19,571 nt of DNA, from contig CAKTUC010000022.1 of the NCBI GenBank assembly GCA_934617135.1, positions 1 through 19,571 of the forward strand. Direction: 5' to 3'. Within the stretch, counting starts at the first letter, position 1; each line of letters starts with the position of its first letter. This DNA comes from an uncultured Collinsella sp. GTDB lineage: Bacteria; Actinomycetota; Coriobacteriia; Coriobacteriales; Coriobacteriaceae. The position numbers and the translations under genes are program-made. The notes beneath the pieces were generated by a model. That model did not search any database, was not told the origin of the DNA, and worked only from the letters and a program-made list of their open reading frames with translations. This document shows, piece by piece, positions 1,652 through 19,520 of the stretch.

Positions 1652-1695
1652 GAATATCGCATGTTACGTGCATAGAAGGAGGAATGGGAGGAAAC

Positions 1696-4509
1696 GTGGC
1701 TGAGAACCCAAGCAACCAGTCTGTACCCGAAGCCGCGGCGCGTGTCGCTGCCGTGGTCAACCGCCTCGTTAACCGAATCGGCTCGAATGCCGAGTCCAAG
1801 GAGCGTCTCGCCGAGATCGAGATCCCCGAGGAGCTGCGCGACAATCTGGCGCTGTTCTTGCGCCTGGAGCGCCGTGTGCTTAGCGAGTATGATCCCGAGA
1901 TCGCGGACCTGTTCGACAAGATTTTGACAGCCGAGATTGTGGCCAATGCCGGCAATCCCGGTAGCCGTGCTGCCGACGAGTCCGTCGACGAGCAGGGCGT
2001 GCCCACTGCCGACGAGCCCACCGCCGTGGCGTTTCGCGAAGTCGTTGATCTGATCGACAGCCTGCCGCTCGATAAACAGCAGGTTATCGTCCGCGCTTTT
2101 ACGAGCTTCTTCCATCTGGCAAACCTGTCGGAGGAGAACTACCGCGTGGCGCAGCTGCGCGAGCGCGAGGCCGGCGCGTCGACCGATACAGAGGTCGATC
2201 CCGCCAACGAACTCACCGTCGCCTATCACCAGTTGGTAAACGAGATGGGTGTCGAGGGCGCCAACGAGCTGCTCGACAAGCTGGAGTTCCACCCTGTCTT
2301 TACCGCACATCCCACTGAGGCCCGTCGCAAGGCCGTCGAGGGCAAGATTCGCCGTATCTCCAACCTGCTGGAGGAGCGTCCGCGTCTGGGCGGCTCCGAC
2401 CTGGTGGAGAACGAGCGCCACATGCTGCAGGAGATCGACGCCCTGGTTCGCACGAGCCCCATCGCACTCAAGAAGCCCACGCCGGTCGAGGAAGCCGATA
2501 CCATCATCGACATCTTCGATAACACGCTGTTCGACGTTATCCCCGTCATCTATCGTCGTTTTGACGACTGGGTGCTGGGCGACAAGGCCGGCACCGTGCC
2601 GCCGCTGTGCCCGGCATTCTTCCATCCCGGCAGCTGGATCGGCTCTGACCGCGACGGCAACCCCAACGTCACCGCTAAGGTAAGCCGCGAAGTCGCCGCC
2701 AAGTATTTCACCCATATGGTGCTCAAGCTCGAGGACAAGTGCCGCCGCATCGGCCGCAACCTCACGCTCGAGGCCACCTACAGCAAGCCGTCTGCCGAGC
2801 TCATGAACCTGTGGAACCATCAGGTCGAGATGAGCACCCAGTACACCGCGCGTGCTGAGTTGATTTCCGAGCACGAGCCGCATCGCGCCGTCATGCTCGT
2901 CATGGCCGATCGTTTGAACGCCACCGTGCGTCGCATCACCGACACCATGTATCACAGCGCAGACGAGTTCCTGGATGACCTGCGTGTCGTTCAGCGCTCC
3001 CTGGCCGCCTGCGGTGCCGTCCGTGCTGCCTACGGCCCGGTTCAGACCATCATCTGGCAGGTCGAGTCCTTCGGCTTCCATATGGTCGAGATGGAGTTCC
3101 GTCAGCACTCCGTGGTGCACGCCCGCGCCCTCAAGGATATCCACGAGAACGGTATCCACGGCGACCTGCAGCCCATGACGCGCGAGGTCATCGATACCTT
3201 CCGCGCTATCGGCTCCATCCAAAAGCGCTACGGCAAGAAGATGGCGCACCGCTACATCATCTCGTTCACCAAGAGCGCCCAACATGTGGCCGACGTCTTT
3301 GAGCTTGCCCACCTGTCCTTTGCGCACGAGGAGGATGTCCCCGAGCTCGACGTGATCCCGCTGTTCGAGCAGCTCGAGGACCTCGAGGGCTGCGTCGACG
3401 TGCTCGACCAGATGCTTACTCTGCCCGTGGTGCAAAAGCGCCTTGCCCAGACCAACCGCCGCATGGAGGTCATGCTGGGCTACTCCGACTCTTCCAAGGA
3501 TGCCGGTCCTACCACGGCCATGCTCGCGCTGCACTCCGCGCAGGAGCGTATTGCCAAGTGGGCCGAGAAGAACGATATCGACCTGGTGCTCATGCACGGT
3601 CGCGGCGGTGCCGTGGGCCGTGGCGGCGGTCCGGCCAACAAGGCCGTGCTGGCGCAGCCCAAGGGTTCGGTCAACTGCTTCTTTAAGCTCACCGAGCAGG
3701 GCGAGGTCATCTTTGCCCGTTACGGCAACCGCACGCTGGCTCAGCGCCATGTTGAGTCCGTTGCCGCCGCAACGCTTTTGCAGTCGGCCCCGAGCGTCGA
3801 GAAGACCAACACCGAGACCACGCAGAAGTTCTGGGATATGGCGGAGAAGCTCAACGCAGTAAGCCATGAGCGCTATCTGGACCTGCTGAACACCGAGGAC
3901 TTTACACCGTGGTTCTCGACCGTGACGCCGTTGACCGAGGTCGGTCTGCTGCCGATCGGCTCGCGTCCCGCCAAGCGCGGTCTTGGTGCCAAGTCGCTCG
4001 ACGACCTGCGTACTATTCCGTGGATCTTCAGCTGGAGCCAAGCGCGCATTAACCTGGCCGCTTGGTACGGCCTGGGCACCGCCTGCGAGCAGCTGGGCGA
4101 TCTTGACCAGCTCAAGGCTGCCTACCAGGAGTGGCCGTTCTTCCGCACGTTCATCGACAACATCGAGATGTCGATCGCTAAGACCGATCAGCGCATCGCC
4201 AAGATGTACCTGCACCTGGGCGATCGCCAGGATCTGTCCGAGAAGGTCTTCACCGAGATGCAGCTTACCCGTAAGTGGGTCCTTGCCATCGTCGGTGACG
4301 AGTGGCCGCTGCAGCGTCGCCGCGTGCTTGGCTGCGCCGTTCGTGTGCGCAACCCCTACGTCGACGCCCTGTCCATCGCCCAGGTCCGCGCCCTTCGCGA
4401 GGTGCGTATGAACCAGGACGAGATGGCGGAGGAGAAGAAGGCCGAGTACATGAGCCTGATTCTTTCGACTGTTACCGGCGTCTCGGCAGGACTGCAGAAC
4501 ACGGGGTAA
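1696..4509 (+). CDS. ppc: Phosphoenolpyruvate carboxylase
   Basis: Anaplerotic enzyme that carboxylates phosphoenolpyruvate with bicarbonate to oxaloacetate and phosphate. From the GTG start the product is 937 aa, within the family's usual 850-970. The catalytic signatures are all present: FTAHPTEA with the catalytic histidine at about 205, GSDRDGNP at 316-323, GYSDSSKDAG at about 595-604, HGRGGAVGRGGGP starting at 634, and the conserved C-terminal QNTG. I prefer GTG at 1696 because GGGAGG at 1686-1691 lies 4 bases upstream and AAGGAGG precedes it. An in-frame ATG at 1684 is only one base from that first Shine-Dalgarno, which is too close. It is a single-gene unit followed by a palindromic element and a strong terminator. 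Confidence 0.97.
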   Translation: MAENPSNQSVPEAAARVAAVVNRLVNRIGSNAESKERLAEIEIPEELRDNLALFLRLERRVLSEYDPEIADLFDKILTAEIVANAGNPGSRAADESVDEQGVPTADEPTAVAFREVVDLIDSLPLDKQQVIVRAFTSFFHLANLSEENYRVAQLREREAGASTDTEVDPANELTVAYHQLVNEMGVEGANELLDKLEFHPVFTAHPTEARRKAVEGKIRRISNLLEERPRLGGSDLVENERHMLQEIDALVRTSPIALKKPTPVEEADTIIDIFDNTLFDVIPVIYRRFDDWVLGDKAGTVPPLCPAFFHPGSWIGSDRDGNPNVTAKVSREVAAKYFTHMVLKLEDKCRRIGRNLTLEATYSKPSAELMNLWNHQVEMSTQYTARAELISEHEPHRAVMLVMADRLNATVRRITDTMYHSADEFLDDLRVVQRSLAACGAVRAAYGPVQTIIWQVESFGFHMVEMEFRQHSVVHARALKDIHENGIHGDLQPMTREVIDTFRAIGSIQKRYGKKMAHRYIISFTKSAQHVADVFELAHLSFAHEEDVPELDVIPLFEQLEDLEGCVDVLDQMLTLPVVQKRLAQTNRRMEVMLGYSDSSKDAGPTTAMLALHSAQERIAKWAEKNDIDLVLMHGRGGAVGRGGGPANKAVLAQPKGSVNCFFKLTEQGEVIFARYGNRTLAQRHVESVAAATLLQSAPSVEKTNTETTQKFWDMAEKLNAVSHERYLDLLNTEDFTPWFSTVTPLTEVGLLPIGSRPAKRGLGAKSLDDLRTIPWIFSWSQARINLAAWYGLGTACEQLGDLDQLKAAYQEWPFFRTFIDNIEMSIAKTDQRIAKMYLHLGDRQDLSEKVFTEMQLTRKWVLAIVGDEWPLQRRRVLGCAVRVRNPYVDALSIAQVRALREVRMNQDEMAEEKKAEYMSLILSTVTGVSAGLQNTG

Positions 4510-4530: not shown

Positions 4531-4655
4531 GGGCCCGCCATAGGTTTACTTTTAGGCACGTCCTCGGACATGCGAGAAGCCCCGCTGCGCACTTCGTGCG
4601 GCGGGGCTTCTCGCGTCCTGCGGGATGTGCCTAAAAGTAAACCTATGGCGGGCCC
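4531..4655. repeat. Compound palindrome, copy 1 (conserved core, unique arms)
   Basis: The outer arms 4531-4559 and 4627-4655 are perfectly complementary over 29 bases. Inside them are GTCCTCGGACAT (4560-4571) and GTCCTGCGGGAT (4615-4626), a 14-bp inner stem (4572-4585 with 4601-4614), and an apex CGCAC-TTC-GTGCG (4588-4600). A second copy with the same layout and core but different arms lies at 6963-7087. It starts 21 bases after the ppc stop. There is no T-run directly after it, and a separate terminator follows at 4722. The function is unknown. Confidence 0.9.
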
Positions 4656-4858: not shown

Positions 4859-6160
4859 ATGAAAGGAAGAGGGCGCTCGTCGTTGTTTGAATGTGAACTG
4901 CCGTTTGACCACAAGACGTTGCATCTGGAGCTCGAGGATAAGAACTTCGCGGGTGTGATGGAAGGTCATCAAAACGAGTTTAAGACCACGAAATCTCAGG
5001 AAGAGCTGGTAGAGGAGTCGCTTGCCAACCCTTATGGTTCGCCTTCGCTCGAGGAGCTTTGTGCTGGCAAGAAGGATATCGTCATCATTAGCTCCGACCA
5101 TACGCGTCCCGTTCCTTCGCGTGTGACGATGCCTATTCTGCTGCATCACATCCACTCCGCTGCGCCTGAGGCGCGCGTTCGCATTCTGGTCGCTACGGGT
5201 ATGCATCGTCCGTCGACGCACGAGGAGCTCGTCAACAAGTACGGCGAGGAGATCGTTGCCAACGAGGAAATCGTTATGCACGTCGCGACTGACGACAGCA
5301 TGATGAAAAAGATCGGCACCCTGCCTTCTGGTGGCGAGTGCATTATCAACAAGATTGCCGCCGATTGCGATCTGCTGCTTGCCGAGGGCTTTATTGAGCC
5401 GCACTTCTTTGCCGGTTTCTCTGGTAGCCGCAAGTCCGTCCTGCCTGGCATCGCCAGCTACAAGACCATCATGTACAACCACAACGGTCAGTTTGTGAAC
5501 GATTCCCACTCGCGTGCCGGCAACCTGTGCCACAACCACGTGAGCGAGGACATGTTCGCCGCCGCCGAGATGGCTCACCTTGCCTTTGTGCTCAACGTTG
5601 TGCTCAACGGCAAGCATGAGGTCATCGGCTCCTTTGCCGGCGACATCCACAAGGCGCACGAGGCTGGCTGCGAGTTCGTGAAGAGCCTTGCCGGCGTTGA
5701 GCCCGTCGAGTGCGAGATTGCCATTACCACCAACGGCGGCTACCCGCTCGACCAGAACATCTACCAGGCCGTGAAGGGCATGTGCGCTGCCGAGGCCACG
5801 CTTCCCGAGGGCGGTGTGATCATCGACGTCGCCGGTTGTGCCGACGGTCACGGTGGCGAGGGCTTCTATCACAACATCGCCGACAACGATCCGGCGGAGT
5901 TTGAGCGCGCCTGCATCGATCGTCCCAAGGACGAGACCCTGCCCGACCAGTGGACGAGCCAGATCTTCGCCCGCATTCTGGCACATCACCCCGTGATCAT
6001 GGTTACCGACCTGTGCGATCACCAGATGCTCAAGGATATGCACATGACGCCGGTCAACACTATCGAGGAGGCGCTCAAGCTCGCCTTTGAGATGAAGGGT
6101 GCCGATGCTAAGGTGGCCGTCATTCCCGATGGCCTGGGCGTTGTCGTCGCGCAGCACTAG
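4859..6160 (+). CDS. larA: Nickel-pincer-dependent lactate racemase
   Basis: Interconverts D- and L-lactate using the nickel-pincer nucleotide cofactor bound covalently to a lysine. The product is 433 aa and matches my recollection of Lactobacillus plantarum LarA closely along its length. Visible signatures include SSDHTRPVPS, MHRPSTHEELVNKYG, PHFFAGFSGSRKSVLPG, GGYPLDQNIYQAVKG and DGHGGEGFYHN. The known catalytic set (His108, His174, Lys184, His200) appears at 116, 182, 192 and 208, a constant offset of 8. Nothing resembling a Shine-Dalgarno precedes the ATG at 4859. Either the message is leaderless, or translation starts at an in-frame TTG at 4883 (codon 9), which would restore the known numbering and follows GGAAGAGGG. 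The larD-like gene follows after 49 bases, probably in the same operon. Confidence 0.95.
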   Translation: MKGRGRSSLFECELPFDHKTLHLELEDKNFAGVMEGHQNEFKTTKSQEELVEESLANPYGSPSLEELCAGKKDIVIISSDHTRPVPSRVTMPILLHHIHSAAPEARVRILVATGMHRPSTHEELVNKYGEEIVANEEIVMHVATDDSMMKKIGTLPSGGECIINKIAADCDLLLAEGFIEPHFFAGFSGSRKSVLPGIASYKTIMYNHNGQFVNDSHSRAGNLCHNHVSEDMFAAAEMAHLAFVLNVVLNGKHEVIGSFAGDIHKAHEAGCEFVKSLAGVEPVECEIAITTNGGYPLDQNIYQAVKGMCAAEATLPEGGVIIDVAGCADGHGGEGFYHNIADNDPAEFERACIDRPKDETLPDQWTSQIFARILAHHPVIMVTDLCDHQMLKDMHMTPVNTIEEALKLAFEMKGADAKVAVIPDGLGVVVAQH

Positions 6161-6209
6161 TGCGCGGCCTAAACGAATCGTTTATAACCGACAAGAAAGA
6201 TAAGGTTTT

Positions 6210-6941
6210 ATGCTTACCAAACTCCTCTGCGAATTCGGCGCGACGGCCCTCATGATCGTCTTTGGCGTGGGCGTGCACTGCGATACCGTGCTCAAGGGCA
6301 CCAAGTATCAGGGCTCTGGCCACATGTTTGCCATCACCACCTGGTCTTTTGGCATCTCGGTCTGCCTGTTTGTCTTTGGCGGCGCCGTGTGCATGAACCC
6401 CGCCATGGTGCTTGCCCAGTGCATCGTAGGCCTGGTGCCGTGGAGCAGCTGCATCCCCTTCATGATTGCCGATATGCTCGGCGGCTTTGTGGGCGCCGTA
6501 ATCGCTTGGTTTATGTATGCCGATGAGTTCAAGGCTTCCGAGGGCGTCGTCGACCCCATTGCCCAGCGCAACATTTTCTCGACCAACCCCACCACCGAGG
6601 GTACCAACTATGCCCGCAACTTCTTCTGCGAGGCTATCTGCACCTTCGTGTTCATCAGCGCCATCCTTGCTGCCGCTAGCCGCGCCGGCGAGAACGTTCT
6701 GATGCTCGCCATCTGCGTTGGCCTGATCGTTTGGGCCGTTGGCATGGGCATGGGCGGCATCACCGGCTTCGCCATGAACCAGGCTCGTGACCTTGGTCCT
6801 CGCATGGCCTATCAGGTGCTGCCGATTAAGAACAAGGCTGACAACAACTGGAAGTACGGCCTGCTTGTTCCTGGCATCGCTCCGTTTGTCGGTGCTATTG
6901 TGGCCGCACTGTTTGTGCATGGCTTCTTGGGCATGTTCTAG
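6210..6941 (+). CDS. larD: Aquaporin/glycerol-facilitator family channel, LarD-like lactic acid channel
   Basis: Membrane channel of the MIP family, 243 aa, with about six hydrophobic segments. The first pore motif is a standard NPA (residues 63-65, MNPAMVLAQ). The second is NQA (190-192) within GFAMNQARDLGPR, so proline is replaced by glutamine while the family's downstream R-D-x-G-P-R is intact. In L. plantarum a MIP-family protein in the lar operon (LarD) carries lactic acid across the membrane. Placement 49 bases after larA supports the same role here. The gene name rests on context rather than on a specificity residue. The ribosome binding site is weak (AAGG at 6202-6205). Confidence 0.85.
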   Translation: MLTKLLCEFGATALMIVFGVGVHCDTVLKGTKYQGSGHMFAITTWSFGISVCLFVFGGAVCMNPAMVLAQCIVGLVPWSSCIPFMIADMLGGFVGAVIAWFMYADEFKASEGVVDPIAQRNIFSTNPTTEGTNYARNFFCEAICTFVFISAILAAASRAGENVLMLAICVGLIVWAVGMGMGGITGFAMNQARDLGPRMAYQVLPIKNKADNNWKYGLLVPGIAPFVGAIVAALFVHGFLGMF

Positions 6942-6962
6942 TCCAGGGCTACATAGTTGTCC

Positions 6963-7087
6963 GCTGCCCGCATGGGGTAACTTCCCAGCGCGTCCTCGGA
7001 CATGAAAGAACCCCCGCTGCGCACTTCGTGCGGCGGGGGTTCTTTCGTCCTGCGGAATGCGCTGGGAAGTTACCCCATGCGGGCAGC
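6963..7087. repeat. Compound palindrome, copy 2 (conserved core, unique arms)
   Basis: The outer arms 6964-6991 and 7059-7086 are perfectly complementary over 28 bases, with one further pair at 6963/7087. They are unrelated in sequence to the arms of copy 1. The inner segments GTCCTCGGACAT (6992-7003) and GTCCTGCGGAAT (7047-7058) nearly match copy 1. The 14-bp inner stem (7004-7017 with 7033-7046) differs from copy 1 by compensated changes. The apex CGCAC-TTC-GTGCG is identical. It lies 21 bases after the larD stop, between convergent transcription units. From 7088 to 7168 I see only G+T-rich sequence. Confidence 0.9.
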
Positions 7088-7168
7088 TGCGGAGTCTTTG
7101 CTGCGCTCGAGTAGGCAACCCAACATATATATCTGAATTTGGATGTGATGGGCACTTTGTTGTTAGGC

Positions 7169-7240
7169 GCTTTGAGATGCGGGTGACGCTTTGGGATGCG
7201 TGGCGCCTTGGGGTGGGGTGGTGCTTTGGGATGAGAGGCT
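7169..7240. repeat. Degenerate 18-bp minisatellite, four units
   Basis: Units resembling GCTTTGGGATGCGTGGC begin at 7169, 7188, 7205 and 7223, giving periods of 19, 17 and 18. A weaker unit may begin near 7153. They lie in a strongly G+T-rich stretch: I count 91 of 120 bases G or T in 7141-7260. The array runs up to the TetR stop codon at 7244. Confidence 0.6.
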
Positions 7241-7243
7241 TGC

Positions 7244-7783
7244 TTAGTTGAAGAGGGGTTGTATGGCTGATAGGTAGTCTTTGGCTACGTCGGCTTTGTT
7301 TGCTTGGAAGTTGTGCCAGGCCCACCATTGGACTGTTCCTACGAAGCTTGAGGCTATGTGGTGTAGTAGGAAGCTTCGGTCCATGGTGGCGGCGGGGCCG
7401 TTTGGGTCGGTAGGAACGGTTTCGGCTGCTCGTGACATGATGGTCTTACGTAAGCAGTCGGCGAAGACGCGTGAGCCGGCGCCGGCTACCAGGGCTCGTA
7501 CGCCTTGACGACGTTCCCAGAGATTGTTGAGGATGTGCTCGACTTGTATGAGCGGGTCGTCGAGGGGCGTGCCGTCATCGTCGAGGGCATGGGTGCAGAT
7601 ATCGCTCACGAGTTCGGACAGTAGGTCATCTTTGCTCTTGAAGAGGCCGTAGAACGTGGCCCGACCCACATGGGCGCGAGCGATGATGTCGCCGACGGTG
7701 ATCTTGCCGTAGTCCTCCTCGCGAAGGAGCTCAGAGAATGCAGCAACGATGGCGGCGCGGCTTTTGGTTTTGCGGGCATCCAT
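7244..7783 (-). CDS. TetR-family transcriptional regulator
   Basis: Likely DNA-binding repressor, 179 aa. The N-terminal helix-turn-helix is clear: ITVGDIIARAHVGRATFYGLFKSKDDLL at about residues 28-55, given here in short form as ITVGDIIARAHVGRATFYGL then FKSKDDLL. The C-terminal part would be the ligand-binding and dimer domain and is not recognisable. I start at the ATG (7783), two bases after the larC stop, which implies translational coupling. A TTG ten codons earlier inside larC has no better ribosome site. As last gene of larB-larC-tetR it probably regulates the lar genes, though its target is unproven. The second half uses many codons rare in the neighbours (CTA, ATA, TCA, CGA, GTA) and is strongly G+T-biased on the + strand. 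Confidence 0.85.
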   Translation of the reverse strand: MDARKTKSRAAIVAAFSELLREEDYGKITVGDIIARAHVGRATFYGLFKSKDDLLSELVSDICTHALDDDGTPLDDPLIQVEHILNNLWERRQGVRALVAGAGSRVFADCLRKTIMSRAAETVPTDPNGPAATMDRSFLLHHIASSFVGTVQWWAWHNFQANKADVAKDYLSAIQPLFN

Positions 7784-7785
7784 GG

Positions 7786-8703
7786 CTATGCATCCACGTG
7801 AACAAGCAGGCAACGGAGCGTGCCGGAGCAGACCTCGTAGGGGCGCTTACCGGCGCCGTAGCCGACGGCCTCGATGCGGTAGCGGGCCGGCAGGTGCTCG
7901 GACGTGCGCAGTGCGGCAACGATGGCGGCGCCCGTGGGCGTCACGAGCTCGCCGGCGACCGGCGCGGGCGTGAGGGCGATATTGCCCGCCTGGCACAGGT
8001 TGACGACAGCGGGGACGGGGATGGGCATAAGGCCGTGGGCACAGTGGATGGTGCCGTGACCCTCGGAGAGCGACTCGACCACGATGTCCTCAATACCCAG
8101 GTCATCGAGGCAGATGGCGACGGAGCAGACGTCGACGATGGAGTCGACGGCGCCCACCTCGTGGAACATGACGGTATCGGGCGTTTTGCCGTGGGCCTTG
8201 GCCTCGGCGGCGGCGAGCGCGGTAAAGATGGCGAGCGCGCGACGCTTGGCGCCATCGCTTAGCTGCGAGCCGTCGATGATGGCGGTGACGTCCGCCAAAG
8301 AACGGTGGTGATGGTGGTGGGCGTGATGGTGACCCTCGTGGCCATGACCGTGGGCCTCATGGTCATGCTCGTGGCAGTGCTCGTGTTCGTGCTCGCCATG
8401 ATCATGATGGTGGCGCTCGTGCTCGTGCGTGTGCTCGACAGCTGCTTCGTTGCCGTAGAGCCAGGCCATGTCGTGGTCGTGGTTCTCGAGCTCCTCTGCC
8501 AGCTGAACGTCAAAGTCGCAGGCGTCGATGCCATGCTTGTTTACGCGCGTCACGGCAATCTCAAAGCCGCCGACCGGAAGCGTGGCGAGCTGCTCGCGCA
8601 GATGCTCCTCGCTGGCGCCCAGGTCGAGCAGGGCCGCGACGGTCATGTCGCCGCTGATGCCCGAGGTGCCGTCGATGATAAGCGTGTGCTGATGGTTTGA
8701 CAT
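7786..8703 (-). CDS. larC: Nickel-pincer cofactor nickel-insertion protein, LarC1-length, with His-rich insert
   Basis: LarC inserts nickel into the pincer nucleotide needed by LarA. The 305-aa product has the family start (IIDGTSGISGDMTVAALLDLGA) in the form IIDGTSGISGDM, then FHEVGAVDSIVDVCS, LVTPTGAAIVAAL and GYGAGKRP. Residues 91-133 hold 24 histidines in 43 positions, a probable nickel-binding tract. Known full LarC is about 400 aa or more; in L. plantarum it is made from larC1 and larC2 by programmed frameshifting, and the C-terminal half binds CTP. Here the protein ends right after the LarC1 part, and the next gene in the strand is tetR, so no LarC2 half is present locally. The ribosome site AAGGAG lies 7 bases before the ATG. 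It starts 10 bases after larB. Confidence 0.93.
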   Translation of the reverse strand: MSNHQHTLIIDGTSGISGDMTVAALLDLGASEEHLREQLATLPVGGFEIAVTRVNKHGIDACDFDVQLAEELENHDHDMAWLYGNEAAVEHTHEHERHHHDHGEHEHEHCHEHDHEAHGHGHEGHHHAHHHHHRSLADVTAIIDGSQLSDGAKRRALAIFTALAAAEAKAHGKTPDTVMFHEVGAVDSIVDVCSVAICLDDLGIEDIVVESLSEGHGTIHCAHGLMPIPVPAVVNLCQAGNIALTPAPVAGELVTPTGAAIVAALRTSEHLPARYRIEAVGYGAGKRPYEVCSGTLRCLLVHVDA

Positions 8704-8713
8704 GAAATGCTCC

Positions 8714-9496
8714 TTAGCGGGCGCAGGACGCGCCGGCGCTCAGATGATTGATAAGACTTGCCTGATAGGCGGCGCCGAAGCCGTTGTCGATGTTGACGAC
8801 CGAAACGCCGCTGGCGCAGGAGTTGAGCATGGCGAGCAGTGCGGCCACGCCGCCAAAGCTCGCGCCATAGCCCACGCTGGTGGGGACGGCGATGACCGGA
8901 CAGCTCACAAGGCCTCCGATGACGCTCGCCAGGGCGCCTTCCATGCCGGCGATGGCGATGACCACCTGCGCCTGGGCAAGTTCTTCGGCATGAGCAAGCA
9001 GACGGTGCAGGCCGGCGACACCCACGTCGTAGAGGCGATCGACCTCGTTGCCGTAGAACTCGGCCGTCAACGCGGCCTCCTCGGCGACGGGTAGGTCGCT
9101 CGTGCCGGCGCAGGCGACGACGATGCGTCCGTTGCCGGTGGGGGAGGGCTTGCCACCCACCAGGGCGAGCTGGGCGTCCGGGACATATCCCAGGTCGATG
9201 TCGTTGCCAAGAAGCTCAGCGGTGCGCGCGGCTTTTTCGGCATCCAAGCGCGTGACCAGGATACGCTCCTGGCCGGCATCGAGTAATGCTTTGATAATGG
9301 CGGCAATTTGCTTGGCGGTTTTACCGGCGCCGTAGACAACCTCGCCGGCTCCCTGGCGCACTCCGCGCGAAAGATCGAGCTGTGCAAAGCCCAGATCGGC
9401 GGTCGGAGCCGTCTGGATGCGCGTGAGGGCATCGGCCGGTGCAACATTTCCATCTGCCACGTCACTTAGCAATTGCTCAAGATCGCGTTTGTCCAT
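8714..9496 (-). CDS. larB: Pyridinium-3,5-bisthiocarboxylate cofactor biosynthesis protein LarB
   Basis: LarB carboxylates the pyridinium ring of nicotinic acid adenine dinucleotide and hydrolyses its phosphoanhydride, the first step of nickel-pincer cofactor synthesis. The 260-aa length fits the family. The C-terminal half resembles PurE-type AIR carboxylases, with AGTSDLPVAEEA (about 130-141), AGMEGALASVIGGLV, VIAVPTSVGYGA and VVNIDNGFGA. The ribosome site AAGGGA precedes the ATG by about 7 bases. It is the first gene of the minus-strand cassette larB-larC-tetR, separated from serB by 116 bases that contain an inverted repeat, so it probably has its own promoter. Confidence 0.94.
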   Translation of the reverse strand: MDKRDLEQLLSDVADGNVAPADALTRIQTAPTADLGFAQLDLSRGVRQGAGEVVYGAGKTAKQIAAIIKALLDAGQERILVTRLDAEKAARTAELLGNDIDLGYVPDAQLALVGGKPSPTGNGRIVVACAGTSDLPVAEEAALTAEFYGNEVDRLYDVGVAGLHRLLAHAEELAQAQVVIAIAGMEGALASVIGGLVSCPVIAVPTSVGYGASFGGVAALLAMLNSCASGVSVVNIDNGFGAAYQASLINHLSAGASCAR

Positions 9497-10248: not shown

Positions 10249-10441
10249 GGCGGGCCTTTCCGAGTGCTGTTTTATTGGGGCATATTGTCGCACGTGACGA
10301 GCGCGGGCGGGTGCCGCGGTGCGTCAATTGTTTCGTCTCCGTCAAGTCTTTGGGCAGGAGCCACTTTTTCGCGGTACATCGGCACAGGTGCGATAAGATA
10401 GAACGCCATGTCTGGCTGCGCGGTTTACGCAGGCTGGGCAA

Positions 10442-10483
10442 ATCTGTACGACGCCGCCCGGAACGACACGGGGCGGCACAGAT
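10442..10483 (+). promoter_or_regulatory. Hairpin in the aspS leader
   Basis: ATCTGT (10442-10447) pairs with ACAGAT (10478-10483), and GCCGCCC (10453-10459) pairs with GGGCGGC (10471-10477), with a five-base bulge on the left. It ends five bases before the AAAGGAGG ribosome site at 10488. A smaller hairpin CTGCG-N7-CGCAG lies just upstream. It may affect translation or mRNA stability. I see no T-box sequence. Elsewhere in the serB-aspS gap (10249-10441) a possible -10 TAAGAT at 10394 is the only signal. Confidence 0.45.
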
Positions 10484-10504
10484 CCATAAAGGAGGATCAC
10501 TGGT

Positions 10505-19212: not shown

Positions 19213-19236
19213 GCGCTTTGCGACCTGATTTTTGAA

Positions 19237-19463
19237 CCCGGTGGGCAAAAAATGCCAAATATGAGTACTGTTGCAAAAGAGGTGTCATATCCTTTGGCCT
19301 GTTTTGAGCGAAAAAGGTCAAAAATGAAGTTTTCAAACCCCCTATAGACGCGAATTGGTGCCTTTCAGGCCTTGAAAATCGTCCAAATCGCCCAATTTAG
19401 GCTCGATTTTGCTGCTACTAAAATGGTGACAGTACTCATATTTGCCACTTTTTGCCCACGGGG
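19237..19463. mobile_element. MITE-like element with 35-bp terminal inverted repeats
   Basis: Positions 19237-19271 are the reverse complement of 19429-19463 at 32 of 35 positions. The shared inner 15 bases, AAATATGAGTACTGT, are perfect. The 157-base interior is AT-rich compared with the genes and has no convincing reading frame; AAATCG recurs within it. No target-site duplication is evident. It fits a non-autonomous element, but a large structured RNA is also possible. Confidence 0.65.
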
Positions 19464-19520
19464 TATCCGAAATGTCTCTCGGCAGGCATCTAACGGGTAG
19501 CGCGCAGAGATGTGGTGTAA

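What the first reader, a model, noticed from the sequence alone, without database searches (positions are those of the whole stretch)
4531..4655. Compound palindrome family: invariant core inside unique, perfectly paired arms
Copy 1 here and copy 2 at 6963-7087 have the same nested layout. Shared parts are GTCCTCGGACAT on the left, GTCCTGCGG(G/A)AT on the right, an identical apex CGCAC-TTC-GTGCG, and a 14-bp inner stem with compensated differences. The outer arms are 29 and 28 bp, perfectly complementary in each copy, yet unrelated between copies. Ordinary RNA drift should leave some mismatches, so the arms may be made by copying one flank to the other (template switching at the core), or the core may be a mobile palindrome that recruits arms. 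GTCC-TC-GGAC can also fold on itself or pair across the stem (GGAC with GTCC). Each copy starts 21 bases after a stop codon.
Basis: partly seen in the sequence, partly recalled or inferred. Interest (0 to 1): 0.85.

Follow-up and report, generated by a model that had tools for sequence, protein, structure and literature searches.

The report
Repeated hairpins behind Collinsella stop codons
Two giant hairpins in this gut-bacterium DNA belong to a repeated family that sits just behind gene stop codons, nearly always facing the same way, and whose two arms may be kept matching partly by copying at the DNA level, which makes them a useful natural test of how hairpins evolve.

Summary
Both nested palindromes are real and belong to a dispersed family of about 125-nt hairpins in Collinsella: 63 exact-pattern matches in genome contigs, all titled Collinsella, and 47 hairpins of five related types in one complete genome. 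A related core (type E) occurs in 51 of 65 Coriobacteriaceae genomes.

Sites are stable between strains (9 of 10 intervals), while inner modules and arm alleles are exchanged in place, so a mobile core recruiting arms is unlikely.

Where a flanking gene could be called, the asymmetric core faces the upstream gene: 30 sense, 1 antisense in G003; 84 to 0 for types A-D elsewhere. This suggests an RNA element at mRNA 3' ends.

Arm mismatches show no G·U excess (39 G·T, 33 A·C), 23 of 80 compensated changes are transversions, and some indels are mirrored. That fits DNA template switching, but the contrast with ordinary terminators is only suggestive (p = 0.095). Function is inferred.

The parts
4531..4655 (+). 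Copy 1, whole nested hairpin (type A), 21 nt after the ppc stop codon
4531..4559 (+). Copy 1 left outer arm, 29 nt, perfectly complementary to 4627-4655
4560..4571 (+). Copy 1 left core GTCCTCGGACAT (GTCC helix, TC loop, GGAC helix, AT bulge)
4572..4614 (+). Copy 1 inner module: 14-bp stem 4572-4585 / 4601-4614 with apex TG-CGCAC-TTC-GTGCG
4615..4626 (+). Copy 1 right core GTCCTGCGGGAT (TGC loop)
4627..4655 (+). Copy 1 right outer arm
6963..7087 (+). Copy 2, whole nested hairpin (type A), 21 nt after the MIP-channel stop codon
6963..6991 (+). Copy 2 left outer arm, 29 nt, perfectly complementary to 7059-7087
6992..7003 (+). Copy 2 left core GTCCTCGGACAT
7004..7046 (+). Copy 2 inner module: 14-bp stem 7004-7017 / 7033-7046 with the same apex
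7047..7058 (+). Copy 2 right core GTCCTGCGGAAT
7059..7087 (+). Copy 2 right outer arm
1684..4509 (+). Gene upstream of copy 1, phosphoenolpyruvate carboxylase (name recalled from the sequence, not from a family search)
6210..6941 (+). Gene upstream of copy 2, major intrinsic protein (aquaporin-type channel, PF00230)

Best explanation
The palindromes are two copies of a repeated family of long hairpins at the 3' ends of genes in Collinsella. Shown in sequence: most copies whose gene could be placed begin 4-46 nt after a stop codon with the asymmetric core (GTCC-TC ... TGC-GGAAT) facing the upstream gene; the arms are diverged versions of one consensus and stay paired; sites are stable across strains while inner modules and arm alleles are exchanged in place. 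Inferred: the transcribed hairpin works as a 3'-end RNA element (a barrier that defines or protects the mRNA end, perhaps helping termination), its conserved unpaired bases being the selected, recognised part. Inferred: the arms stay complementary largely through DNA template switching, a change in one arm being copied to the other or copied away, and not only through selection for pairing in the RNA.
For: Orientation: 30 sense, 1 antisense, 1 both, 15 uncallable of 47 in G003; types A-D 84 sense, 0 antisense, 11 uncallable and type E 60 sense, 2 antisense, 3 both, 21 uncallable in other loci, many of them orthologs. Distances 4-46 nt for 32 of 35 sense-called copies. Covariation: 415 of 420 arm pairs Watson-Crick over 15 loci with about 3 pair types per position, 49% after re-dealing right arms; the 4-bp helix between the loops covaries between loci. 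Copying: G·T 39, A·C 33; 23 of 80 compensated changes are transversions; mirrored one-base indels. Loops held: no symmetrised core in 3.28 Mb searched with four patterns. The E core recurs in 5 of 6 genera.
Against: No transcript data. The contrast with terminators in G·U share is p = 0.095. 37 compensated of 139 single or compensated steps could still be chance order of events in small trees, and 59 single changes remain uncorrected. Pairs of alleles with one-arm indels (57) outnumber those labelled mirrored (23), though many one-arm indels lie in the 12-nt flank. Five of 16 complete copies at one locus carry mismatched hybrid arms. 15 of 47 G003 copies have no callable gene next to them.
Confidence: 0.5

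Rival explanations
1. Ordinary RNA evolution: the arms are kept paired only by selection on the sense transcript, one mutation at a time, with no copying between arms.
For: Fixed sense orientation behind stop codons, covarying helices and conserved loops are what a selected RNA shows. 57 of 80 compensated changes are transitions. The G·U contrast with terminators is not significant (p = 0.095).
Against: No G·T over A·C excess in the arms (39 to 33; 7 to 12 in G003); transversions are not depleted among compensated changes; mirrored one-base indels; hybrid mismatched arms persist in 5 of 16 copies at one locus.
Confidence: 0.3
2. The hairpins are transcription terminators, the inner module being a terminator hairpin and the outer arms a reinforcement.
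For: Position and orientation at gene ends. In 10 of 30 hairpin-bearing genes a terminator-like match (GC-rich stem, then T-rich stretch) lies inside the hairpin, for instance GGCTCGC...GCGAGCCTTTTTG.
Against: None of the 30 has a U-tract at the foot of the hairpin, and ordinary U-tract terminators are not depleted behind hairpin genes (9 of 30 within 220 nt against 268 of 764 within 300 nt; p = 0.70). At ppc an ordinary terminator lies further downstream in most strains of that clade. Types B-E lack a clear T-rich stretch by eye.
Confidence: 0.3
3. The hairpins are selfish REP-like repeats that spread in single-stranded DNA and happen to accumulate behind stop codons, without a function of their own.
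For: Dispersed at dozens of sites with uneven numbers between species: E pattern 29 in G003 but 0-3 in many other Collinsella genomes. IS110-family insertions treat them as REP-like targets.
Against: Strict orientation, stable sites between strains, and no cognate mover found: the two Y1 transposase genes of G003 have no family hairpin within the 6-kb stretches checked.
Confidence: 0.2
4. The core is a mobile palindrome that on insertion recruits or copies the flanking DNA into two unique arms.
For: At the hairpin-less ppc site of L080 the bases TCGATTCCC resemble TCGGGTCCC at the distal end of the right arm of the type-B allele.
Against: Arms share a consensus across loci and an almost fixed length of 28-31 bp in types A-D. 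Inner modules, not arms, often differ between strains at one site. The L080 site is equally explained as a deletion scar; a similar scar that keeps the distal right arm is seen in L283.
Confidence: 0.04

Closest known systems
Repetitive extragenic palindromes (REP/BIME; GTAG- and CGTC-tagged families, PMC3733652: abstract, opening part and passages read)
   Same: Repeated intergenic palindromes near gene 3' ends, often between convergent or unidirectional genes, entered by insertion sequences, thought to act as RNA.
   Different: About 125 nt and nested instead of 20-40 bp; conserved asymmetric internal loop inside variable arms; nearly fixed sense orientation; no G·T excess in stems, whereas that paper cites frequent G·T pairing; no RAYT beside them in G003.
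Template-switch maintenance of hairpins (PMC8794818: abstract and passages read)
   Same: Paired, multi-base and mirrored changes that keep stems perfect.
   Different: There in rRNA and other RNA genes, short stems; here in a dispersed bacterial 3'-end family with about 29-bp arms and loops that stay asymmetric.
Intrinsic (Rho-independent) terminators
   Same: Stable hairpin just behind a stop codon; some inner modules have a T-rich 3' side.
   Different: No U-tract at the hairpin foot; 29-bp outer arms; ordinary terminators are not depleted behind them.
Rfam Collinsella-1 (RF01700 in PMC2864571, one passage read)
   Same: A candidate structured RNA of human-gut Actinobacteria.
   Different: No match of the window hairpins at the gathering score or at E up to 5.
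IS110-family targets in REPs (PMC1525189, PMC11208160, PMC11187229: search listing and abstract starts only)
   Same: Here too an IS110-family element enters a palindrome at one fixed point, GTCCTG^CGG, in 4 loci.
   Different: This concerns a parasite of the hairpins, not the hairpins themselves.

Membership tests
REP (repetitive extragenic palindrome) | Repeated, intergenic, palindromic | tested here: met
   53 classified hairpins in G003, none inside a called gene (gene calls cover 83%)
REP (repetitive extragenic palindrome) | 20-40 bp unit | tested here: not met
   About 125 nt with a 28-31 bp outer arm in types A-D
REP (repetitive extragenic palindrome) | Unpaired GTAG or CGTC tag at one end | tested here: not met
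   CGTC occurs at the inner core where the bases are paired, not as an unpaired end tag; flanks read GTCCGG on many but not all copies
REP (repetitive extragenic palindrome) | Associated RAYT transposase | tested here: not met
   Two Y1_Tnp matches in G003; no family hairpin in the 6-kb stretches around them. Other genomes not examined for this
Intrinsic terminator | Hairpin directly followed by a U-tract | tested here: not met
   0 of 30 at the hairpin foot; 10 of 30 have a terminator-like match inside the hairpin
Intrinsic terminator | Ends transcription | not testable with these tools
   No transcript data
MITE / mobile palindrome | Clean empty site and target-site duplication | tested here: inconclusive
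   Hairpin-less sites in L080 and L283 look like deletion scars keeping the distal right arm; no clean empty site found
MITE / mobile palindrome | Conserved ends, variable interior | tested here: not met
   Reverse pattern: core most conserved, arms diverged to 46% mean identity
Quasipalindrome maintained by template switching | Mirrored changes independent of wobble class | tested here: inconclusive
   39 G·T to 33 A·C, 23 of 80 transversions, mirrored indels, but control contrast p = 0.095
Rfam Collinsella-1 (RF01700) | Covariance-model match | tested here: not met
   Not listed at gathering score or at E up to 5

The most novel reading that the evidence does not exclude
A Coriobacteriaceae-specific RNA element at mRNA 3' ends whose conserved unpaired bases (UC, AU and UGC inside GUCC...GGAAU) dock a dedicated protein or 3'-end machinery, while its long arms are maintained by DNA template switching instead of selection for RNA pairing: selection holds the loops and copying holds the arms, in dozens of natural replicates per genome.
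Probability: 0.3. Interest if true: 0.75.

Novelty: new variant of a known kind. Interest (0 to 1): 0.55.

Why it matters
If right, it gives dozens of replicated hairpins per genome, over 43 held Collinsella genomes, in which the mutation process (arm-to-arm copying) and selection (asymmetric loops, fixed orientation) can be told apart. That bears on how perfectly paired stems arise and persist. It also gives a candidate mRNA 3'-end element for a family of common gut bacteria and a defined landing site for an IS110-family element.

Tried and rejected
Mobile core that recruits arms: disfavoured by the arm consensus, stable sites and in-place module exchange.

GTCCT on both sides of the inner module looked like a target-site duplication. 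Dropped: the right-hand 4-mer varies with the left-hand one (GTGC opposite GCAC, GGTC opposite GACC, GCGC opposite GCGC; CCCC opposite GGGC with one mismatch), so it is a paired helix.

The first gene calls (longest ORFs) put many hairpins inside spurious antisense ORFs. They were replaced by a codon-model caller that still misses genes (83% coding). RAYT as the mover: not supported in G003. Rfam at a permissive threshold gave only models far below their gathering scores, mostly microRNA and sRNA, read as long-hairpin chance matches. A-D pattern matches outside Collinsella: 13 of 204 genomes against 2 of 204 for the reversed control. By eye the matched stretches do not fold on themselves and several recur in congeners like coding sequence, but no fold was run on them. 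A same-locus terminator control was too small (7 to 2) and was replaced by 185 terminators. The module regular expression over-extended some modules, so 78 is approximate.

Literature: searches of open-licence PMC papers, of which 45, 54, 55, 58, 75 and 76 bear on novelty. Only the listed top rows were seen (for example 20 of 692). No listed title describes this family; that is no proof of absence.

Full report
WHAT IS THERE. Copy 1 spans 4531-4655 and copy 2 spans 6963-7087; each starts 21 bases after a stop codon (from the sequence). As RNA the sense strands fold at -117.8 kcal/mol, far below shuffles (z -19.2 and -17.5). Rfam at gathering scores finds only an aspS leader elsewhere in the window.

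A FAMILY. The pattern GTCCTCGGACAT-N8..30-CGCACTTCGTGCG occurs 63 times at 58 loci of genome contigs, all titled Collinsella, and 0 times in viral contigs. A motif-free hairpin scan of those loci showed further types with the same internal loop but other helices. One complete unnamed relative, G003 (2,306,349 bp), was read in full. It holds 257 hairpins of at least 16 bp within about 220 nt. By my own motif rules 53 of these fall into related types (A 8, B-D 7, E 26, F 1, H 4, I 2, J 2, K 3). A rescan with somewhat different settings gave 47 of types A, B-D, E, F and H. Types I, J and K are the least secure members. Type E has a related core (CAGTCCTG ... GTGCGGAACT), found in 51 of 65 genomes of the family and 5 of 6 genera, with no match to the reversed pattern in any of the 65. 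The A-D pattern matched 38 of 247 genomes of the order: 25 of 43 Collinsella (one of them, G017, non-palindromic by eye) and 13 of 204 others, against 2 of 204 for the reversed control. The outside matches do not look palindromic by eye.

ARMS ARE RELATED. Fifteen locus groups of types A-D were compared, one best-paired allele each. Mean arm identity between loci is 45.6% against 26.1% for shuffled arms, with clear positional preferences. The two window arms agree at 15 of 28 positions. So the arms are diverged members of one consensus. Pairing within copies is 415 of 420 for these representatives, 405 of 420 for one random allele per locus, and 2932 of 3024 over all 108 copies (60 of 108 perfect over 28 bp). 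Re-dealing right arms between loci gives 49%. The 4-bp helix between the conserved loops also varies in step between loci.

POSITION AND ORIENTATION. With a codon-model gene caller none of the 53 hairpins lies inside a called gene, 35 are called sense, and 32 of those 35 start 4-46 nt after a stop. Testing 47 copies for a coding ORF ending at either side gave 30 sense, 1 antisense, 1 both and 15 uncallable; for types A-D 13 sense, 0 antisense, 2 uncallable (binomial p = 3e-8 and 2e-4). In other fetched loci types A-D were 84 sense, 0 antisense, 11 uncallable, and E 60 sense, 2 antisense, 3 both, 21 uncallable. Many of these are orthologs of the same sites; the two antisense cases (L009, L011) pair with one G003 site, 1356967. 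At least three convergent gene pairs carry two hairpins on opposite strands. The arms are symmetric, so the only directional part is the asymmetric core. Its fixed direction relative to transcription is the main reason to think of an RNA function.

STABLE PLACES, EXCHANGED PARTS. A-D sites of other strains mapped to 10 G003 intervals, of which 9 hold a hairpin; at the tenth G003 has about 525 bp of other sequence (three loci gave no paired flanks). Other hairpin-less or deleted sites are L080 at ppc and L283 and L285 at an E locus. At the MIP-channel site the same arms hold GAAAGAACCCCCGC or GCAAAAAGGCTCGC stems in different strains, and 7 of about 78 distinct inner modules occur in two or more locus groups. 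At ppc some strains have a type-A and others a type-B hairpin behind the same stop codon, with right halves of A or B hairpins further downstream. At an E locus 5 of 16 complete copies pair a left arm of one allele with a right arm of another (L267, L271, L272, L273, L279; by eye). Recombination through the conserved core would explain module exchange and such hybrids.

HOW THE ARMS STAY PAIRED. Unique interior mismatches in 199 hairpins: G·T 39, A·C 33, other 21 (p = 0.56 against 1:1). Blocks of mismatch, as in the hybrids, end the scored arm and are not counted. In G003 alone the figures are 7, 12 and 10 of 1224 pairs. In 185 ordinary U-tract terminators of G003 a similar symmetric method gives 53, 25 and 11 (p = 0.002 against 1:1). 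The contrast between the two sets is p = 0.095, so suggestive only. Along minimum spanning trees of alleles there are 80 compensated pairs, 59 single changes and 7 double changes that do not pair; 23 of the 80 compensated are transversions, no fewer than among mismatches (21 of 93, p = 0.38). Exactly mirrored one-base indels occur (L009/L022, L268/L274). Of allele pairs with indels 23 were labelled mirrored and 57 one-armed; pairs are not independent, and many one-arm indels lie in the flank. Arm-to-arm copying in replication predicts this pattern; a stepwise G·U path does not. The process was proposed for RNA genes in PMC8794818 (abstract and passages read). Copying across the core would make the loops symmetric, yet four patterns for symmetrised cores had 0 matches in 3.28 Mb. 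So the loops are probably held by selection, or copying tracts stop at them.

WHAT IT PROBABLY DOES. The best-supported reading is an RNA element at mRNA 3' ends. A pure terminator is possible but less likely. None of 30 hairpin genes has a U-tract at the hairpin foot, and ordinary terminators are not depleted behind them (9 of 30 within 220 nt against 268 of 764 within 300 nt, p = 0.70). In favour of it, 10 of 30 have a terminator-like match inside the hairpin. End protection or processing with a bound protein is inferred, not shown.

MOBILE PARTNERS. Four of the 63 pattern matches (L003, L019, L021, L053) are cut at GTCCTG^CGG by one element; its 462-aa open frame in L019 matches PF01548 and PF02371, the IS110 family. 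IS110-family elements are reported to choose targets by guide RNA and to enter REPs (PMC11208160, PMC11187229, PMC1525189: listing and abstract starts). Y1 transposase genes occur in 6 of 8 Collinsella genomes tested, but are not next to this family in G003.

NOVELTY. The listed results of searches contain no description of this family (only the top rows of each were seen). It works like REP-type 3'-end hairpins but fails their size, tag and RAYT criteria as tested here, so it is filed as a new variant of a known kind.

Noticed in passing
L019 4101-5489 (+); junctions in L003, L019, L021, L053: An IS110-family element (PF01548, PF02371) sits at the same point, GTCCTG^CGG, of type-A hairpins in four loci; in L003 another IS (IstB-like frame, recalled) interrupts it.
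   Followed up: partly
L066-L069, L071, L073-L079, between ppc and larA: Right halves of type-A or type-B hairpins, starting near the apex, lie downstream of an intact hairpin, as if arrays lost left halves.
   Followed up: partly
L267, L271, L272, L273, L279: Hybrid copies whose left and right arms come from different alleles and do not pair over several bases.
   Followed up: partly
window 19236-19271 and 19429-19464: Inverted pair (36 nt, 92% complementary, 157 nt apart) that resembles a G003 family with conserved ends GTGGACAAAAAATGCCAAATATGAGTACTGT at 265427, 1270180, 1372231 and 1867660, MITE-like.
   Followed up: no
G003 881179-881505 (L334): A Y1 transposase gene lies beside GGGACAAAATAATCAGTAGTATTTGTCCC, like hairpins at G003 629789 and 875221: a candidate RAYT with its own repeat, separate from the family studied here.
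   Followed up: no
G003 468115, 1078042, 1084836, 1092697, 1242470, 1890069, 1957594, 2050185: Another abundant palindrome family with conserved ends (GATGTTACAGATCGAGACA).
   Followed up: no
window 4859-9496: Lactate racemase cluster: LarA domains (PF09861, PF21113), MIP channel (PF00230), nickel insertion protein (PF01969) and AIRC-type LarB-like protein (PF00731); copy 2 lies inside this cluster.
   Followed up: partly
window 10410-10493: aspS RNA leader (RF02930, 76.1 bits) in front of the aspartate-tRNA ligase frame.
   Followed up: no
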